Shown here piece after piece: positions 10,583-64,000 of a DNA stretch of 64,000 nucleotides. The notes beneath the pieces are model-generated. The model did no database searches. It had not been told where the DNA came from and saw nothing but the letters and a program-made list of their open reading frames with translations. The position numbers were made by a program, and so were the translations under genes. Positions within the stretch are counted from its first letter, which is position 1. Each line of letters opens with the position of its first letter. Location of the stretch: contig NZ_JAQGPL010000001.1 of NCBI RefSeq assembly GCF_028826105.1, forward strand, positions 683,501 to 747,500, read 5' to 3'. The DNA comes from Paenibacillus humicola. Its GTDB lineage: Bacteria; Bacillota; Bacilli; Paenibacillales; Paenibacillaceae.

Positions 10583-10611
10583 GGGCTTGTCCATAACGAC
10601 AATCAGCAGCT

Positions 10612-10684
10612 CTTTTCGTATAATCCCGGGAATAGGGCCCGGGAGTTTCTACGAGGTCACCGCAAATGATCCGGCTACGAAAAG
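10612..10684 (+). promoter_or_regulatory. Guanine-type purine riboswitch (pbuG leader)
   Basis: P1 is CTTTTCGTA (10612-10620) paired with TACGAAAAG (10676-10684). The conserved TATAATC, the P2 arm with GGGAATAGGGCCCGGGAG, the core TTTCTACGAGG and the P3 arm all follow in order. The pyrimidine that selects the ligand (position 74 in xpt numbering) is C, predicting guanine or hypoxanthine. The junction reads GGCTAC where GACTAC is usual, an A73G-type change. Ligand binding should stabilise P1 and free the terminator that follows, lowering permease expression when purines are plentiful. Confidence 0.92.
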
Positions 10685-10687
10685 CTT

Positions 10688-10734
10688 GAAAAGGCGCGCA
10701 GCTTCCGGTCCGCTGCGTTACCTTTTCTCGTTTT
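10688..10734 (+). terminator. Riboswitch-controlled terminator
   Basis: GAAAAGGCGCGCAGC pairs with GCTGCGTTACCTTTTC and is followed by TCGTTTTG. It begins four bases after P1, so competition with P1 for the intervening bases is the likely switch. Confidence 0.75.
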
Positions 10735-12601: not shown

Positions 12602-12630
12602 TTGACAGGCGTAGGGCGGTTGAGTAAACT
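12602..12630 (+). promoter_or_regulatory. Promoter of the purine operon
   Basis: TTGACA at 12602-12607 and TAAACT at 12625-12630 are separated by 17 bp. Transcription would start near 12637, eleven bases before the aptamer. Confidence 0.82.
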
Positions 12631-12647
12631 GAATTTGTGCATGAGCA

Positions 12648-12716
12648 GTTCGTATATATTCGGGAATAAGGCCCGGACGTTTCTACCCGAAAACCGCAAA
12701 TTTTCGGACTACGAGC
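12648..12716 (+). promoter_or_regulatory. Guanine riboswitch of the purine operon
   Basis: P1 is GTTCGTA (12648-12654) with TACGAGC (12710-12716). P2 contains GGGAATAAGGCCCGG, the core is TTTCTACCC, and P3 is GAAAACCGCAAATTTTC. The ligand-selecting base is C in GGACTACG, so guanine or hypoxanthine is predicted. Together with the PurBoxes this gives control of initiation (PurR, PRPP) and of elongation (guanine), as in B. subtilis. Confidence 0.93.
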
Positions 12717-12731
12717 GCGAGTTGAAGAGAT

Positions 12732-14617: not shown

Positions 14618-15913
14618 ATGTTGGAACGGTACAGCAGACCGGAAATGAGAGCGATTTGGACCGAGGAGAACAAATTCAAAGCATGGCTCGAGGTCGAGCT
14701 TTGCGCCTGCGAAGCGTGGGTGGAGCTCGGCGCGATACCGCGCGAGGACGCCGAAGCGCTGCGCAGCGGCGCAACCTTTAACATCGACCGCATCAACGAA
14801 ATCGAGCAGGAGACGCGCCACGACGTCATCGCCTTTACGCGCGCCGTTTCCGAGACCGTCGGCCCGGAGCGCAAATGGGTCCATTACGGCCTGACGTCGA
14901 CGGACGTCGTCGATACGGCGCTCGGCTATCTGCTCCGCCAGGCGAACGCGATTTTGGAAAAGGACATCCTGAACTTCATCGACATTCTCCGCGTCCAGGC
15001 GGTCGCCTACAAGGATACGCCGATGATGGGCAGGACCCACGGCGTTCATGCGGAGCCGACGACCTTCGGTCTTAAGGTTGCGCTCTGGTACGAAGAGATG
15101 AAGCGAAACCTCGAGCGGTTCCGCCATGCGGCCGGCGGCGTCCAGTTCGGCAAAATTTCCGGCGCGGTCGGGACGTACGCCAACATCGATCCGTTCGTCG
15201 AGCAGTTCGTCTGCGAGAAGCTCGGCATTTCGCCGGCGCCGATCTCGACCCAGACGCTGCAGCGCGACCGCCACGCGGAATATATGGCGACGCTCGCCCT
15301 CATCGCGACGTCGCTCGACAAGTTCGCGACGGAAATCCGCGCCCTGCAGAAGAGCGAGTTCCGCGAAGTGGAGGAGCCGTTCGCCAAAGGGCAGAAGGGC
15401 TCGTCCGCGATGCCGCACAAACGCAATCCGATCGGCTGCGAGAACATTTCCGGCCTGGCCCGCGTCATCCGCGGCCATATGATTTCCGCCTATGAGAACG
15501 TCACGCTCTGGCACGAGCGCGACATCAGCCACTCCTCGGTGGAGCGTATCATTTTGCCGGATGCGACGATGCTGCTGAACTATATGCTGAACCGGCTCGG
15601 CAACATTATCAAGAACCTGACTGTATTCCCGGAAAACATGAAACGCAACATGCAGCGCACTTACGGCGTGCCGTTCTCCGGCCGCGTGCTGACGAAGCTG
15701 ATCGACAAGGGCTTCAGCCGCGAGCGGGCGTACGACACCGTTCAGCCGCGCGCGATGCAGGCGTGGGAGGAACAGCGCCAGTTCCGCGACATCATTGAAG
15801 CGTCGCCGGAAATTACGGAGGTGCTGTCGCCGGAAGAGATCGACGACTGCTTCAACCCGGCGTGGCATCTGAAGCATGTCGATACGATTTTCAAACGTCT
15901 CGGATTGATCTGA
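14618..15913 (+). CDS. purB: Adenylosuccinate lyase
   Basis: A 431-residue lyase that acts twice in purine synthesis, on SAICAR and on adenylosuccinate. It carries the signature [12 protein letters not shown] with the catalytic serine loop, the TSTDVVDT region and the [12 protein letters not shown] region with the general acid His. The length is standard. After it there is a 144-base gap before purC, longer than most spacings in this operon, with no terminator seen. Confidence 0.98.
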
Positions 15914-16057
15914 CGCGTCAGCCGCGCCGCCCGCTTTCTTCACGGATTGCCGGGCGGGAAGTGGGTGACGCGGATAAGCATGCCGCAGGTACGGGCTGCG
16001 CCGGACAGGCTTTTCACGAGCCGGTACACGCGGCAGATGAAAGGGAGCGAGATAACG

Positions 16058-16948
16058 ATGACTGCACAAGCGCTGTCCACGGCGGCCGATTATGTGAAAG
16101 CGCCGCTGCTGTATAAAGGCAAGGTGCGCGAGCTGTACGATCTGGGCGAGCATTATTTGATCGTCGTCACCGACCGCATCAGCGCGTTCGATTACGTGCT
16201 CGAACCGGCGGTGCCGGAGAAGGGCAGCGTGCTGAACCGCCTGTCGGCGTTCTGGTTCGAGCAGACGAAAGGGATCCAGCCGAACCACGTCGTCCATACG
16301 GATGTGAGCCGGCTCGGCGATCTCGTGACGGAGCCGGAGCTATTGAAAAACCGCATCATGGTCACGAAAAAAGCGGAGCGCATCGACATCGAATGCGTCG
16401 TCCGCGGCTATATCACGGGCGGCGGTTGGAGACAATATACCAAAACGTCGGCGGTGAACGGCATTCCGCTGCCGGCGGGCATGCACAAGAACGAGCGCTT
16501 CGAGCGCCCGCTCTTCACGCCGGCGGCCAAAAACGACGTCGGCCACGACGAAGATATTTCGTTCGAACGGATGCAGGAGCTGGTCGGCGTCGAGCTGGCA
16601 GAAGAGCTGTGCGACCGCAGCGTGAAGCTGTACGAATTCGCGCGCGCCTACTGCGAAGAGCGCGGCATCATTCTGGCCGACTGCAAATTCGAGTTCGGCC
16701 TTATCGACGGTCAAGTCATTCTCATCGACGAAATTTTTACGCCCGACGCTTCCCGGTTTTGGGCGAAAGAAAACTACGCATACGACATCGAGATCGACAG
16801 CATGGACAAAGAGCCGGTGCGCAGCTACCTGGCCGCATCGGACTGGGATCAGAACAGCAAGCCCGACCCGCTGCCGGCCCGCGTCGTTGAAGAAACGACC
16901 CGCCGTTATCTCGAGATCTACCGCCGCTTGACGGGCGAATCGCTGTAG
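16058..16948 (+). CDS. purC: SAICAR synthetase
   Basis: A 296-residue enzyme joining CAIR and aspartate. The start is placed at the ATG at 16058, preceded by AAGGGAGCGAG. An upstream in-frame extension of 37 codons looks non-conserved. Family motifs are LLYKGKVRELYD, DRISAFDYV, ECVVRGYITGGGW and DCKFEFG. At 296 residues it is of the longer type than the about 240 residues of B. subtilis PurC. Confidence 0.95.
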   Translation: MTAQALSTAADYVKAPLLYKGKVRELYDLGEHYLIVVTDRISAFDYVLEPAVPEKGSVLNRLSAFWFEQTKGIQPNHVVHTDVSRLGDLVTEPELLKNRIMVTKKAERIDIECVVRGYITGGGWRQYTKTSAVNGIPLPAGMHKNERFERPLFTPAAKNDVGHDEDISFERMQELVGVELAEELCDRSVKLYEFARAYCEERGIILADCKFEFGLIDGQVILIDEIFTPDASRFWAKENYAYDIEIDSMDKEPVRSYLAASDWDQNSKPDPLPARVVEETTRRYLEIYRRLTGESL

Positions 16949-41839: not shown

Positions 41840-41874
41840 TTGGGACAGGGGTTCAAATCCCCTCGCCTCCACCA
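41840..41874 (+). other. tRNA-like or tmRNA 3' half with CCA
   Basis: It has a canonical T-arm AGGGG-TTCAAAT-CCCCT, then CGCCTCC, discriminator A and CCA. The 3' strand CGCCTCC-A is what a tmRNA of the G3-U70 alanine type would carry with a GGGGGCG partner. No tmRNA body precedes it: only about 150 bases separate it from rlmCD. A perfect partner GGAGGCG occurs at 41748-41754, but the 110 bases between do not fold into a normal tRNA. The best reading is a 3'-end fragment left at an integration site. A highly unusual tRNA-like gene is the alternative. Confidence 0.6.
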
Positions 41875-59499: not shown

Positions 59500-60060
59500 T
59501 CATAAAGCATTAAGGAGTTTATTACGATATATATTAAAATTCTCATCATCGAAGCAGGCAAAATAAATCTTCTCGATTGTTGCTTGCTCGACACTCACAG
59601 GGTTTAAATAATCAAACACAGCCTCAAGTGCAGTTTCAGCTGCGAGCTGCTTGGGGAAACGGTAAATCCCCGTGCTGATATTTGGAAAAGCAATGCTCTT
59701 GGCTTTATATTCCGAGGCAAGGCTAAGGGAATTTCTGTAGCAGCTCTTGAGTTTTTCAATTTCGTTTTTGTTACCACCGTTCCATACAGGACCTACCGTA
59801 TGTATAACATGGGAAGCGGGAAGGTTGCCTGCCGTAGTAATGACTGCCTCACCGACAGCGCAGCCTCCTTGTCGTTCTCTTATCTTTACGCATTCTTCGA
59901 GAATGCTTTTGCCGCCTGCTTTATGAATTGCACCATCCACGCCACCGCCACCAAGTAAGCTTGTGTTCGCGGCATTAACTATCACGTCGGCCGTTACTTT
60001 CGTAATGTCTCCTTGAATCAACGTAATGATTGTTTGATTGAACTTTATGTAGTCCTCCAT
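59500..60060 (-). CDS. Macro-domain ADP-ribose-processing protein
   Basis: A 186-residue single macro domain. Key motifs are [33 protein letters not shown] (the catalytic GGVDGAIH loop) and ISTGIYRFP. Such proteins remove ADP-ribose from proteins or nucleic-acid ends, or deacetylate O-acetyl-ADP-ribose. It overlaps the WYL gene upstream by 16 bases, so it belongs to that operon. Beside RNA-repair genes, a role in reversing ADP-ribosylation of RNA or tRNA ends is possible; this is inference. Confidence 0.92.
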
Positions 60061-60917
60061 ATTTCCCCTTCAACAGCAAAATTCATTACCAACTGCGAAG
60101 AAAGTTCCTCGTCGGCCGGAATGACCCCGTAGCGTTCTAAAGCCTTCGTCGATGATTCCAACATACGTCTTTTCAAATAATCGCCTTTAACAACCCGAAC
60201 CCGCTTCCCCAGAAAACGGATCTTGGAAAGTAAATACTCCATTTCATCTCCAAGCAAAGAAACCCCGACTCGATAGGTATCGTTCTCCGAATCGTACTCA
60301 ACGTTTTTTTCAAAGCTGGAGAAGGCGTACAGGATACGGGACAACTCTGCGTTATAAACAGGGACAATTTCAATAATCACTTCATTTTTACGCGATTCAA
60401 GCGTTTTTCCGATCCTTTTTAGAATGCTTTCGGCTGCTGACGGCTCAATAGGTTCTGGTGTGACGGAATGAACCTTTTTCAGCCGGGTGCTCATAAAAGC
60501 ATGAGGCCGTGTGCGATGCCAAAGCAAATACCACTCTCTTTTGACCATGGAGTATTCCAGCTTATACGGAATCCCGGAATGGTCTGTATTTACACGCCCG
60601 CCCTTGACCTCGTAGGTTATACGGATGCCCGTCTTATTCATGATGTGGCGGCGCAAAGGCCGCAGGAGCGGGTGGTAGACCTGCTTTTCCATTGTACGGG
60701 CTTTTTCAATCAAGTGATGGGATATATCCATCACTTGATCAGATTCGAGAACTGAACGTAGCATGTCCAAAGTGTCTGCAGTGAAAGCATCTGCCGCCGC
60801 GGGATGCTCCAGCATGGTCTTTAGCCAAGCCCGTTCATGCGAAGTGACCATGAAGGTACCGGAATCCTCCAACCGGGAAATGATCTGGTGATTGAATATT
60901 TTCTCAAACAGATTCAT
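60045..60917 (-). CDS. WYL-domain protein (second of a pair)
   Basis: A 290-residue protein. The middle contains the WYL-like core: [10 protein letters not shown], later [19 protein letters not shown] and the C-terminal [20 protein letters not shown]. The N-terminal 100 residues lack a clear helix-turn-helix, unlike its neighbour. I place the start at ATG 60917, after AAGGAG that lies inside the upstream gene. WYL domains are ligand sensors, often of nucleic-acid fragments. Confidence 0.82.
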
Positions 60918-62250
60918 AGTAGGACTGAATCTCCTTCCATTCGGCAATCATTTCCCGGCGAAAATGAGCGGGTTCAAGAACCTCACAGCTGGAACCAAAA
61001 CTCCGCAGCCACGGCTTGATTTCGGTAGTACCGTTTACGGTAATCTCATAAATAAAAGAATGTTCATCTTCGAACACAATCTGTCCCCACTGTCCCTGCA
61101 GCATGACCCGTTCTTTGACGAAGTTAGGTTCAGAACCTTCAGGATTATAAAATCGGGCGCGCACCGTAACCGGTCGTCCGGTATCGATCAGCCAACTGTA
61201 GCGTATTTTCTCAGTAAGTTCGTTTTTCTTTTCCTCATACCAAACCTCGTCAACGGATTCGTCCTCTTCAATTTGCGTGATACCTTCCATACGGTATTTT
61301 CGAATCCCCTCTCGGCCATGAGAAAGCAGGTACCATCTTCCATATTGATGATCATAGACAATCTTAAGCGGCAGCGTCTTTTCAGCTTTGCCCTCCGTAT
61401 CCCGTTCAAACAAGGGATTGGTGTTTTTAGAGGCGTAGCTTTTTTCCGACTTCGGTGAGAAGTATAGAAAACGGACTTTGCGGCGGTGACGGATGGCATG
61501 GAGGAGTGTGAACAGATGTGCCTCATCCAGGATCCGCGAGTAGTAATGATATTTATATAAAAATGGCTCTACAGCATATTGCTCGACTTGATTGCGCAAA
61601 AGATGCTTCTTGAGCCCATCACGCAGCAGATATCCTTGAACGGAAGGAACCTGTGTGTTCGCCATCACATCTACAAAATCATATAAATCTAGAAGCTCTT
61701 CATCCGATAAGCTGCGAATCAAGTCGTCTTGAATGCGATACCGGAAGGGGCGAGGACCAAGCTCCCTCTTGATGACTCCGACCTCTTCCAGGTATTTGAG
61801 ATCGGACCGAATCGTTTTTTCGTCAGGCAGAGGAAGATCGGACGGCAGACTGCTGCAGTACATATCCAAGAGCTCCATTGTAGTCAAAGACTGCTCATTC
61901 ATCGCGGCTAATAACAGCGTGATTCGTTGGCTTTCGGATTCCTTGACCGATTTGGCGCGAAATAGAAACAAGAGCAGCGGGTCAGTGGAGTCATAATAGC
62001 TGAACCGAATGGTTTCAGAAAACTCTTTGCTCTGTTCCTGCGGCAAATGCTGGTGCACGGAGCTGATGACCTCTTTGAGCCTCCGGATCGTTTTATCGAA
62101 AGTGTGGACGGAAATGCCCAATCTTTCTGCAAATTGTTGTCTGCTAAACGCCCCGCTTGTCAGCACCAGCATACGCAGGAATTGAATTTCTTTATCAAAG
62201 CTTTCCTTAGCCAAAGAGATCCCCCGTTCAAATGATGCAGCTTCTTCCAT
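60904..62250 (-). CDS. WYL-domain transcriptional regulator (first of a pair)
   Basis: A 448-residue protein. A helix-turn-helix near residues 33-65 (FSRQQFAERLGISVHTFDKT) and a second winged helix near 110-160 precede the WYL domain at about 265-345 (VRFLYFSPKSEK, then YGRWYLLSHGREGIRKYRM) and the C-terminal extension. ATG at 62250 has no Shine-Dalgarno; TTG twelve codons in follows GGGGGAT and is an alternative. It reads away from the tRNA-like RNA and slipin, in the position of a regulator of them. Confidence 0.88.
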   Translation of the reverse strand: MEEAASFERGISLAKESFDKEIQFLRMLVLTSGAFSRQQFAERLGISVHTFDKTIRRLKEVISSVHQHLPQEQSKEFSETIRFSYYDSTDPLLLFLFRAKSVKESESQRITLLLAAMNEQSLTTMELLDMYCSSLPSDLPLPDEKTIRSDLKYLEEVGVIKRELGPRPFRYRIQDDLIRSLSDEELLDLYDFVDVMANTQVPSVQGYLLRDGLKKHLLRNQVEQYAVEPFLYKYHYYSRILDEAHLFTLLHAIRHRRKVRFLYFSPKSEKSYASKNTNPLFERDTEGKAEKTLPLKIVYDHQYGRWYLLSHGREGIRKYRMEGITQIEEDESVDEVWYEEKKNELTEKIRYSWLIDTGRPVTVRARFYNPEGSEPNFVKERVMLQGQWGQIVFEDEHSFIYEITVNGTTEIKPWLRSFGSSCEVLEPAHFRREMIAEWKEIQSYYESV

Positions 62251-62330
62251 TGTAGCAGGGGAGGGAACTGGACGGAATGGAAAACTTTATGCCCAGTCGT
62301 AATACTTTCGCCATGTTCGGTTCCCGTGGA

Positions 62331-62553
62331 AAGTGCGATTATAGTACCTGTAAGACACCTGGTTCTTATTTGGACGGTCGTAACGAGGCGGGGATATCGT
62401 ATTATCCCGCAGTGCCGTGCCTGTTAGGCTTCGGTATCCTGTACGATCGGATCGGTAAGAATCCACTATTTGGGGTTCGATTCCCCAATCGCCATGGGAG
62501 CGATTCTGGTAGAGCACACTCGACTTTCAATCGAGCGAAAATCTAATCAAAGG
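62331..62553 (+). ncRNA. tRNA-like non-coding RNA region, permuted (Y-RNA-like candidate)
   Basis: In order on the plus strand: a hairpin GGAT-CGGTAAGA-ATCC like a D-arm (about 62448-62464); a perfect T-arm TTGGGG-TTCGATT-CCCCAA (62470-62488); AATCGC (62487-62492) pairing with GCGATT (62500-62505) around a 7-base loop, like an acceptor stem closed by a loop; GGTAGAGCAC like a D-loop; and CTCGA-CTTTCAA-TCGAG (62519-62535) like an anticodon arm. The T-arm precedes the D-loop, so this is not a standard tRNA. Bacterial Y RNAs contain such a tRNA-mimicking module. Upstream, 62331-62435 holds more tRNA-like and hairpin pieces. The exact RNA ends are unknown. Confidence 0.55.
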
Positions 62554-62803
62554 CCAAAGGAGAGAATCCCTAGCGGCTAGCATAAGCGCACTGCAGCTCA
62601 GCCATGTAATCTGTGGATACCGATGAGCGGAACACCGAAGACTTTTGCAGGGTGGAAGAGGAACAAGGCTGGCTGAATGAGGGCCAAACTTCTGAACCGG
62701 ATATCCTTCAAAAGCACCGGCTGACCGCTTATCTCAAACGGATTCCGCCGGAACTCCAGGGGGATTCTTCATCCAATGGTCGAACCATGAGGAGGTAATA
62801 AAG

Positions 62804-63919
62804 ATGTTGAAACAAGTAACCATTCAAGCCGACCAGCGCGGTTTACTTTTCCATAAAGGAAGCTATGTAAAGAAGCTCAATCCGGGGACCTACCGGTATG
62901 TATCGTGGTCGCAACATACCGTTGTCGTGCTGAGTCTCGCGAAGCCGTTCGTTGTAGAGGGAAAAGAGCTGCAGCTGTTCCTTCAAGATGAAGACCTGGT
63001 GCGAGAGCTCGATATCGTACAGGTACAGGACCACGAGTACGTACTGCATTATGAGGACGGCCAATTCGTGCAGCTGCTCAAGCCTGGCACCTACGCCTAT
63101 TGGAACATCTTGAAGAAACACACGTTCCTGTATGCGGATATCCGGAATCCTGAGCTGCCTGCCGAGGTAGACCGCTCGATTCTGGCGAAGCTAGCCATTC
63201 ATGTGCAGTCTTATGAGATCGCAAGCTACGAGTCCGGTTTTTTGTTTTATGATCATGTTCTGCAACGGCAGCTTGCACCCGGGAAATACTACTTCTGGAA
63301 AGGGCCCGTTTCGGTTGTCGTCAAGTCGGTTGACGGAAGACAGCAGCAAATGGATCTTATCGGCCAGGAAATTATGACGGAGGATAAGGTCACACTGCGC
63401 CTGAACTTCGTCTGCCAATACAAGATTGTAAACCCGATGCGTTGCTTGGAAATGAAATCGTTCGACGAGCAGATTCACATCCAGCTTCAGCTCATGCTTC
63501 GGGAGTATGTCGGAACGCTGAAACTGGACGATCTCCTGAAGCGGAAGGAGGACGTAGCCTCGTTCGTCCTGTCCCGTTTACGCGAGAAGGGGGAGGCGTT
63601 CGGAGCACAGTTCCTAAGTGCGGGGGTTAAGGATGTCATTTTACCGGGGGAAATGAAGGAGATCCTAAACACGGTCCTGCTGGCGGAGAAAAAGGCCCAG
63701 GCGAATCTCATCACCCGCCGAGAGGAAACGGCCTCGACCCGAAGTCTGCTGAATACCGCTAAGCTGATGGATGAGAACCAGACGCTGTTCCGTCTGAAGG
63801 AGCTGGAATTCCTCGAGAAAATATGCGAGAAAATCGGGTCTATCTCTGTAACGGGCGGCGGAGACCTGTTGGAACGGCTAAGCTCTCTCATTGGGGATAA
63901 GAAGGCGGCAAGCAAATAA
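62804..63919 (+). CDS. Slipin (band-7/SPFH domain protein)
   Basis: A 371-residue protein. The N-terminal 150 residues form two beta-rich repeats with RGLLFHKGSYVKKLNPGTY and SGFLFYDHVLQRQLAPGKY. The SPFH core follows, with MTEDKVTLRLNFVCQYKIV and a C-terminal coiled helix (LAEKKAQANLITRREETAS). There is no clear membrane helix. This slipin type recurs next to RtcB, Ro60 and other RNA-repair genes. It starts behind GAGGAGG, directly preceded by a small hairpin ATGGT-CGA-ACCAT. Confidence 0.9.
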   Translation: MLKQVTIQADQRGLLFHKGSYVKKLNPGTYRYVSWSQHTVVVLSLAKPFVVEGKELQLFLQDEDLVRELDIVQVQDHEYVLHYEDGQFVQLLKPGTYAYWNILKKHTFLYADIRNPELPAEVDRSILAKLAIHVQSYEIASYESGFLFYDHVLQRQLAPGKYYFWKGPVSVVVKSVDGRQQQMDLIGQEIMTEDKVTLRLNFVCQYKIVNPMRCLEMKSFDEQIHIQLQLMLREYVGTLKLDDLLKRKEDVASFVLSRLREKGEAFGAQFLSAGVKDVILPGEMKEILNTVLLAEKKAQANLITRREETASTRSLLNTAKLMDENQTLFRLKELEFLEKICEKIGSISVTGGGDLLERLSSLIGDKKAASK

Positions 63920-63967: not shown

Positions 63968-64000
63968 ATGAGCCGTTACCATCAAGAAATCTTGACTGCG
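63968..64000 (+). CDS. Start of a further gene, cut by the window
   Basis: ATG at 63968 follows AAGGAGG. Only MSRYHQEILTA is visible, too little to identify. Its spacing of 48 bases from slipin indicates the same operon. Genes expected here in RNA-repair operons include a nucleotidyltransferase, RtcB or a Ro60 (TROVE) protein. Confidence 0.6.
   Translation, partial: MSRYHQEILTA

What the first reader, a model, noticed from the sequence alone, without database searches (positions are those of the whole stretch)
62331..62553. Permuted tRNA-like RNA between WYL regulators and slipin
A perfect T-arm, an acceptor-like stem closed by a 7-base loop, a D-loop-like GGTAGAGC and an anticodon-like hairpin occur in the order T, acceptor, D, anticodon. 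That is a circularly permuted tRNA order, as in the tRNA-mimicking module of bacterial Y RNAs, although here with a complete anticodon-like hairpin added. It lies where a Y RNA or guide-like RNA would be in an RNA-repair operon. No gene explains this conserved structure.
Basis: partly seen in the sequence, partly recalled or inferred. Interest (0 to 1): 0.85.

Follow-up and report, generated by a model that had tools for sequence, protein, structure and literature searches.

The report
Permuted tRNA-mimic RNA beside slipin
Just before a gene for a ring-type (slipin) protein in an RNA-repair gene cluster lies a long, strongly conserved RNA that contains a tRNA shape with its parts in rotated order; relatives occur in several bacterial phyla, and a weaker version in about three in ten complete E. 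coli genomes offers a way to test it.

Summary
Window 62471-62535 reads T arm, capped acceptor, D loop, anticodon arm: a circularly permuted tRNA. Put back in tRNA order, ARAGORN accepts 36 of 95 such modules; native order 0 of 95; shuffled 1-3. The module lies inside a ~430-nt structured RNA (about 62345-62770) ending 34 nt before slipin. In 46 relatives an 81-pair structure has 90.1% paired cells and 64 pairs changed on both sides (39.4 shuffled). Of the matches above 55 bits found with a model of the RNA alone, all 44 loci inspected (10 from training genomes) have slipin downstream. By record titles it reaches Clostridia, Spirochaetota, Bacteroidota and, weakly, E. coli. It is not a Y RNA: no YrlA match, no Ro gene in the genome. 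Slipin is predicted to have three beta repeats, SPFH and a long helix; among listed solved structures only some major vault protein chains align over nearly the whole model. Best reading: RNA partner of a slipin particle in RlaP/RtcB RNA repair; a cis-acting leader is the main rival. From recall only: Burroughs and Aravind (2016) already mention a tRNA-like RNA with Band-7 proteins.

The parts
62297..62319 (+). conserved block TCGTAATACTTTCGCCATGTTCG, likely regulator site and -35 region
   Evidence: Found with at most 5 mismatches in 53 of 114 upstream regions (regions cut at 640 nt), 42 of them with a -10-like hexamer 14-24 nt later; no shuffle control was run for this. No second exact copy in the genome, only two 3-mismatch sites. 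Promoter role inferred.
62337..62342 (+). -10-like hexamer GATTAT, 17 nt after the block
   Evidence: inferred, start site not mapped; the sigma-70 consensus scan lists no + strand promoter here.
62345..62770 (+). whole structured RNA (ends approximate)
   Evidence: 46-sequence alignment A5 and 81-pair structure; GU cells 298 against AC 100, which favours the + strand. The stretch before 62366 is not in A5.
62371..62454 (+). 5' domain: closing helix 62371-62382/62442-62454 around two hairpins (GGGAT..ATCCC and CAGTGC..GTATCCTG)
   Evidence: Helices 1-5: 29 pairs, 23 with a change on both sides.
62471..62487 (+). T arm
   Evidence: helices 6-7; model R1 match 62386-62541 at 149.4 bits (this window is one of R1's 15 training sequences).
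62488..62504 (+). acceptor stem closed by a 7-nt loop
   Evidence: Helix 8: 97.8% paired, 4 of 5 pairs with a change on both sides.
62505..62518 (+). reduced D arm (TGGTAGAGC)
   Evidence: Full D arm TAGCTCAGTGGTAGAGC in relatives such as L072 and L122.
62519..62535 (+). anticodon-like arm, triplet TTC, not conserved
   Evidence: Helix 9 (95.6% paired); 20 different triplets among 51 arms, none found in 44 modules.
62562..62769 (+). 3' domain closed by a long-range helix (AGAATCCC 62563-62570 with GGGATTCT 62761-62768); conserved GGATACCG at 62615-62622
   Evidence: Helices 10-16; GGATACCG exact in 87 of 114 upstream regions against 0.55 in mononucleotide shuffles.
62804..63919 (+). slipin / Band-7 protein, 371 aa
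   Evidence: PF01145; structure model and fold search.
63968..64000 (+). start of RlaP nucleotidyltransferase gene (cut by the window end; RtcB follows)
   Evidence: L032 ORFs; PF10127 and PF01139.
60904..62250 (-). divergent WYL-WCX regulator
   Evidence: PF13280, PF25583.
60045..60947 (-). second regulator-like ORF, called WYL2 here (no Pfam family at E<=1e-3)
   Evidence: the name is mine.

Best explanation
A ~430-nt structured noncoding RNA, transcribed with slipin, is the RNA partner of the slipin ring or cage. It shows a tRNA elbow (T and D loops) in permuted form: the acceptor end is sealed as a hairpin and the variable-loop side opens into two further RNA domains. The elbow draws tRNA-handling or tRNA-cutting enzymes, or damaged tRNA, to a slipin scaffold where RlaP and RtcB act in genomes that carry them. 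Shown: sequence, consensus structure, permutation, constant gene pairing with slipin. Predicted: protein architecture. Inferred: transcription, processing, slipin binding, repair role.
For: RNA-only search: all 44 inspected loci above 55 bits have slipin downstream on the same strand (truncated in L071); 10 of the 44 are from genomes used to train the model, 34 are not. 13 inspected loci at or below 45 bits have no slipin and sit in clusters of three or more tRNA genes. Covariation. Among 80 named slipin loci an RNA match at E<=1e-3 lies upstream in 66, while RtcB is in the held flank of only 25, so slipin is the constant partner. In L006, L011 and L024 the RNA lies between an RtcB-type gene and slipin and the promoter-like block was not found. 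The anticodon triplet varies while T arm and acceptor stay; 14 loci carry two tandem modules. Slipin has no strong hydrophobic segment (19-residue maximum 1.12) and a layout like major vault protein. RlaP and RtcB next door.
Confidence: 0.5

Rival explanations
1. Cis-acting leader: the permuted tRNA domain senses tRNA cutting or free tRNA enzymes and controls slipin-rlaP-rtcB expression.
For: Directly upstream of slipin in the loci inspected, usually about 36 nt before the start codon; no + strand terminator found between them in the window; promoter-like block upstream.
Against: Size and three-domain build are unusual for a leader (recalled); the consensus structure models no pairing with the ribosome site, though only one structure was modelled and RNAalifold's own first version did pair the T arm with it; expression control could already be served by the WYL regulators.
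Confidence: 0.3
2. Decoy for anticodon nucleases or other tRNA-binding toxins, independent of a slipin particle.
For: tRNA shape with varied anticodon triplets; RNA-repair setting; a zeta-toxin-family gene beside the E. coli islet.
Against: No 5+7+5 anticodon arm found in 44 of 95 modules; a pure decoy needs neither the two other domains nor a constant slipin partner.
Confidence: 0.15
3. A permuted tRNA gene whose transcript is cut and circularised to give a working tRNA.
For: tRNA geometry after rotation; RtcB ligase nearby.
Against: Acceptor closed by a loop with mostly 5-6 pairs (93 of 113 modules), no constant anticodon, arm not found in 44 of 95 modules; the flanking domains are themselves conserved.
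Confidence: 0.04
4. Chance or a decayed tRNA piece.
For: Tandem tRNA genes do score about 30-45 bits with the model.
Against: 64 pairs with compensatory changes against 39.4 shuffled; slid controls at most 45.1% paired.
Confidence: 0.01

Closest known systems
Bacterial Y RNA (YrlA, RF02553) of rsr-yrlBA-rtcBA operons
   Same: tRNA mimic in circular permutation (Y RNA 6CU1 against tRNA: PMC11472068, passages); sits in an RNA-repair operon (PMC7790460, passages). Whether the break points of the permutation agree I could not read.
   Different: No YrlA match, no Ro/TROVE gene in the genome, about 430 nt against the 114 positions of the YrlA model, partner is slipin.
Band-7/SPFH-linked tRNA-like RNA mentioned by Burroughs and Aravind 2016 (abstract recalled; paper not held)
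   Same: SPFH/Band-7 module with a cognate tRNA-like RNA in RNA-repair operons; probably the same object.
   Different: Could not be compared. Whether the permutation, the ~430-nt fold, tandem modules or the vault-like slipin were described there is unknown to me.
Eukaryotic vault (major vault protein plus vault RNA)
   Same: Beta repeats, SPFH shoulder and long helix in one protein (predicted); small RNA partner by analogy.
   Different: Three repeats instead of nine (nine is recalled); no shared RNA structure shown; no TROVE gene in the genome.
tmRNA
   Same: tRNA-like domain embedded in a larger RNA.
   Different: Acceptor end is sealed here; ARAGORN finds no tmRNA in the window; the genome's tmRNA gene is elsewhere.
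Permuted tRNA genes of algae and archaea (PMC3978253, search listing only)
   Same: 3' half of the tRNA encoded before the 5' half (recalled).
   Different: Here embedded in a conserved larger RNA with no constant anticodon.

Membership tests
Bacterial Y RNA | match to the YrlA covariance model | tested here: not met
   No match of any Rfam family up to E 5 over 62200-62850; no YrlA match at E<=1e-3 in the genome.
Bacterial Y RNA | Ro/TROVE partner gene | tested here: not met
   Own genome 0 matches; 8 of 59 genomes searched match, over profile positions 280-365 of 442 only.
Bacterial Y RNA | circularly permuted tRNA mimic | tested here: met
   rotated 36 of 95, native 0 of 95, shuffled 1-3 of 95.
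Bacterial Y RNA | binding to Ro | not testable with these tools
   Needs experiment.
Functional tRNA | constant anticodon and open acceptor end | tested here: not met
   20 triplets among 51 arms, arm not found in 44 of 95 modules; acceptor closed by a loop.
Band-7-linked tRNA-like RNA (Burroughs and Aravind 2016) | tRNA-like RNA encoded with a Band-7 protein | tested here: met
   the definition itself is recalled, not read.
Major vault protein architecture (slipin) | beta repeats plus SPFH shoulder plus cap-like helix in one chain | tested here: inconclusive
Vault ribonucleoprotein | assembles a cage containing an RNA | not testable with these tools
   Needs electron microscopy and RNA co-purification.

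The most novel reading that the evidence does not exclude
A bacterial vault-like ribonucleoprotein: slipin, built like a shortened major vault protein, forms a cytosolic cage that carries a ~430-nt RNA displaying one or two permuted tRNA elbows, and the cage gathers cut tRNAs with RlaP and RtcB. It would be a bacterial counterpart of the vault, whose function is still unclear.
Probability: 0.2. Interest if true: 0.92.

Novelty: new variant of a known kind. Interest (0 to 1): 0.72.

Why it matters
It gives an RNA with no Rfam family found a covariation-backed consensus structure and a constant protein partner, suggests that permuted tRNA mimicry is not confined to Y RNAs, and may tie bacterial RNA repair to a protein built like the vault shell. 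A weaker version precedes slipin in an islet held (at least 80% of the RNA-slipin stretch) by 1621 of 5426 complete E. coli genomes and absent from that site in K-12 MG1655, so gain-of-function tests in laboratory E. coli are direct.

Tried and rejected
Rfam at gathering threshold found only two purine riboswitches in the window and with E up to 5 nothing over 62200-62850. ARAGORN finds no tRNA or tmRNA in the window. An 89-codon + frame overlaps the RNA (62277-62546); the same frame is open over 222 nt in 8 of 90 relatives with a placed T arm, the other two frames in 6 and 5, so it is not a conserved gene. Taking every R1 match at E<=1e-3 as a member was rejected: 293 of 295 family genomes match, but the lower-scoring loci inspected are tRNA gene clusters (13 of 13); I used 55 bits as the line, which leaves 116 of 295 (counted from the listing). 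RNAalifold's first full structure paired the T arm with the slipin ribosome site; I replaced those pairs by hand with the T arm. Rows dropped: L007 (RNA body deleted), L022 (too diverged) and L023 (no RNA) from A1; L012 and L017-L020 (no clear anticodon arm) from the model alignment A2; 123 upstream regions (80 named, 43 from the RNA search; L071 left out) collapsed to 114 after identical ones, some of them from the same species as the training set; 46 close ones kept for A5. Of 16 loci with two or more module hits I judged two spurious by eye (L119, L161) and one hit each in L159 and L184, leaving 14 loci. Viral contigs gave one slipin locus (L190, 35% identity); tblastn against phages gave none, against plasmids 10 records.

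Literature searches for this RNA: whose listings were capped (for example 30 of 147 papers, 20 of 100). No listed title or abstract start named a slipin-linked RNA. The key paper, Burroughs and Aravind 2016, is not held; its title I saw only in reference lists and its abstract is from recall.

Full report
WHAT IS THERE. Neither ARAGORN nor Rfam explains them, and the + frame that overlaps them is not conserved (open in 8 of 90 relatives, other frames in 6 and 5). Past the window edge the operon continues with RlaP (PF10127, described in Pfam as RNA repair pathway DNA polymerase beta family) and RtcB (PF01139); a WYL-WCX regulator, a second regulator-like ORF and a macro-domain protein lie on the other strand upstream.

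CONSERVATION. A slipin search of 59 related genomes, the window's own included, gave 36 with a match. Of the 23 loci that I read (L002-L024), 21 carry a long conserved stretch upstream of slipin; L007 keeps only its 5' end and L023, with a 35%-identical slipin, has none. Twenty of the 21 were aligned (A1; L022 left out as too diverged); RNAalifold found 31 pairs, 14 with compensatory changes. With 46 close sequences (A5) an 81-pair structure scored 90.1% paired cells (79.9 shuffled), 64 pairs changed on both sides (39.4) and 397 doubly changed cells (128.3), no shuffle of 500 reaching any of these; sliding the partner by 1-3 columns gave at most 45.1%. The structure was derived from a different alignment of the same sequences, so the slid control favours it, and the shuffle control ignores relatedness. 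GU cells outnumber AC cells 298 to 100, which favours the slipin-sense strand as the RNA.

ANATOMY. The RNA has a 5' domain (a closing helix around two hairpins), the permuted tRNA module, and a 3' domain closed by a long-range helix and holding the motif GGATACCG (exact in 87 of 114 upstream regions, 0.55 expected in mononucleotide shuffles). The module is a circular permutation: re-ordered, ARAGORN accepts 36 of 95; in native order 0 of 95; with the 5' part shuffled 1-3 of 95. Searching for acceptors of 5-7 pairs and loops of 3-12 nt, 93 of 113 modules have 5-6 pairs and loops run from 3 to 11; a crude D-loop pattern is found in 63 of 113; triplets at the anticodon position vary (20 kinds in 51 arms) and a 5+7+5 arm was not found in 44 of 95. 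Fourteen loci, after discarding spurious hits by eye, have two tandem modules, for example in Herbivorax, Petroclostridium, Kroppenstedtia, Pelosinus and Fulvivirga. A conserved block about 25 nt before the presumed RNA start is followed by a -10-like hexamer in 42 of the 53 regions in which the block was found (of 114; no shuffle control), and looks like its promoter; the generic sigma-70 scan lists no + strand promoter there. In L006, L011 and L024 an RtcB-type gene precedes the RNA and the block was not found. The RNA ends 34 nt before slipin here and 32-115 nt (median 36) in the 46 relatives.

DISTRIBUTION. A covariance model of the 5' hairpins and module (R1, 15 sequences) was run over 295 family and 398 class genomes. 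Most genomes match at E<=1e-3 (293 of 295; 352 of 398), but the 13 loci inspected at or below 45 bits lie in tRNA gene clusters, where one tRNA's T arm and the next one's D and anticodon arms imitate the permuted order. Above 55 bits there are 116 of 295 family genomes, and ten class genomes outside the family, counted from the listings. The 44 of these loci that were fetched all have slipin downstream; 10 of them are from training genomes, which had been picked by slipin, and 34 are not. Conversely, among 80 named slipin loci found by protein (best 80 of 591) the model matches upstream in 66 at E<=1e-3; by eye, T arms occur in several of the other 14. By record titles, with class names partly recalled, the hosts include Paenibacillus, Thermoactinomycetaceae (Kroppenstedtia, Seinonella, Shimazuella), Clostridia, Pelosinus, Erysipelotrichaceae, Spirochaetota and Bacteroidota. 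In E. coli a slipin-RlaP islet between yjbD and lysC carries a weak but well-placed match (19.3 bits, E 3.2e-5 in 35 kb) with a T arm (4 of 5 pairs) and a 7-bp capped acceptor; 1621 of 5426 complete E. coli genomes hold at least 80% of the RNA-slipin stretch; K-12 MG1655 has no slipin at that site, and no RNA feature is annotated there in the one RefSeq genome read. Subdoligranulum and Burkholderia loci gave weaker matches (15.4 and 14.7 bits). RtcB is in the held flank of 25 of 80 named loci, WYL1 of 28, RlaP of 12, so slipin, not RtcB, is the RNA's constant companion.

MECHANISM. Shown: consensus structure, permutation, gene pairing, operon context. Predicted: protein layout. Inferred: the RNA is kept as a stable species, binds slipin, and uses its tRNA elbow to attract tRNA enzymes or damaged tRNA to a scaffold served by RlaP and RtcB. 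Supporting context from papers (passages only): in Anabaena a slipin-family gene and rtcB are both raised without the repressor TrcR, whose repression is relieved under translational stress (PMC10272220; whether that slipin is of this family was not tested); in Pseudomonas aeruginosa an SPFH gene lies inside the rtc locus (PMC13086221); [quoted passage not shown] Band-7 proteins are described as implicated in complex assembly, citing Burroughs and Aravind 2016 among others (PMC11237479). The main rival is a cis-acting leader, since no + strand terminator separates RNA and slipin in the window.

KNOWN OR NEW. It works like a Y RNA in shape but is not one by the two tests made. From recall, the abstract of Burroughs and Aravind 2016 names SPFH/Band-7 modules with a novel tRNA-like RNA; the paper is not held, so I cannot say how much of the anatomy it gives. 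I therefore rate it a new variant of a known kind and keep the vault-like ribonucleoprotein as the boldest reading.

Noticed in passing
window 41848-41874: Perfect 27-nt copy of the 3' end of the genome's tmRNA gene (the full gene is at G000:C1 about 233.9-234.2 kb), the kind of duplicate left at an island attachment site.
   Followed up: partly
L032:3286-4467 (-), downstream of rtcB: Tyrosine-integrase-like ORF, with two DNA cytosine methylase-like genes 6-12 kb further on (L032:10421-11494 and 15213-16931), suggesting a mobile or defence island next to the repair operon (reading by eye).
   Followed up: no
window 10596-10697 and 12630-12731: Two purine riboswitches (Rfam RF00167).
   Followed up: no
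L201:6490-7416 (-): A zeta-toxin-family gene next to the E. coli RNA-slipin-RlaP islet.
   Followed up: no
L180, L184, L185, L188: All four Bacteroidota slipin loci scanned have tRNA genes (ARAGORN) 0.9-3.5 kb upstream of slipin.
   Followed up: no
L199:4600-4760: Upstream of a Burkholderia slipin two T arms occur, one apparently in a complete tRNA in normal, unpermuted order (by eye): a possible link to the ancestor of the permuted form.
   Followed up: no
window 59500-60060 (-): Macro-domain (ADP-ribose) protein beside the regulators; vaults carry an ADP-ribosylating enzyme (recalled), so the pairing may be worth a look. Found in the held flank of only 1 of 80 named loci.
   Followed up: partly
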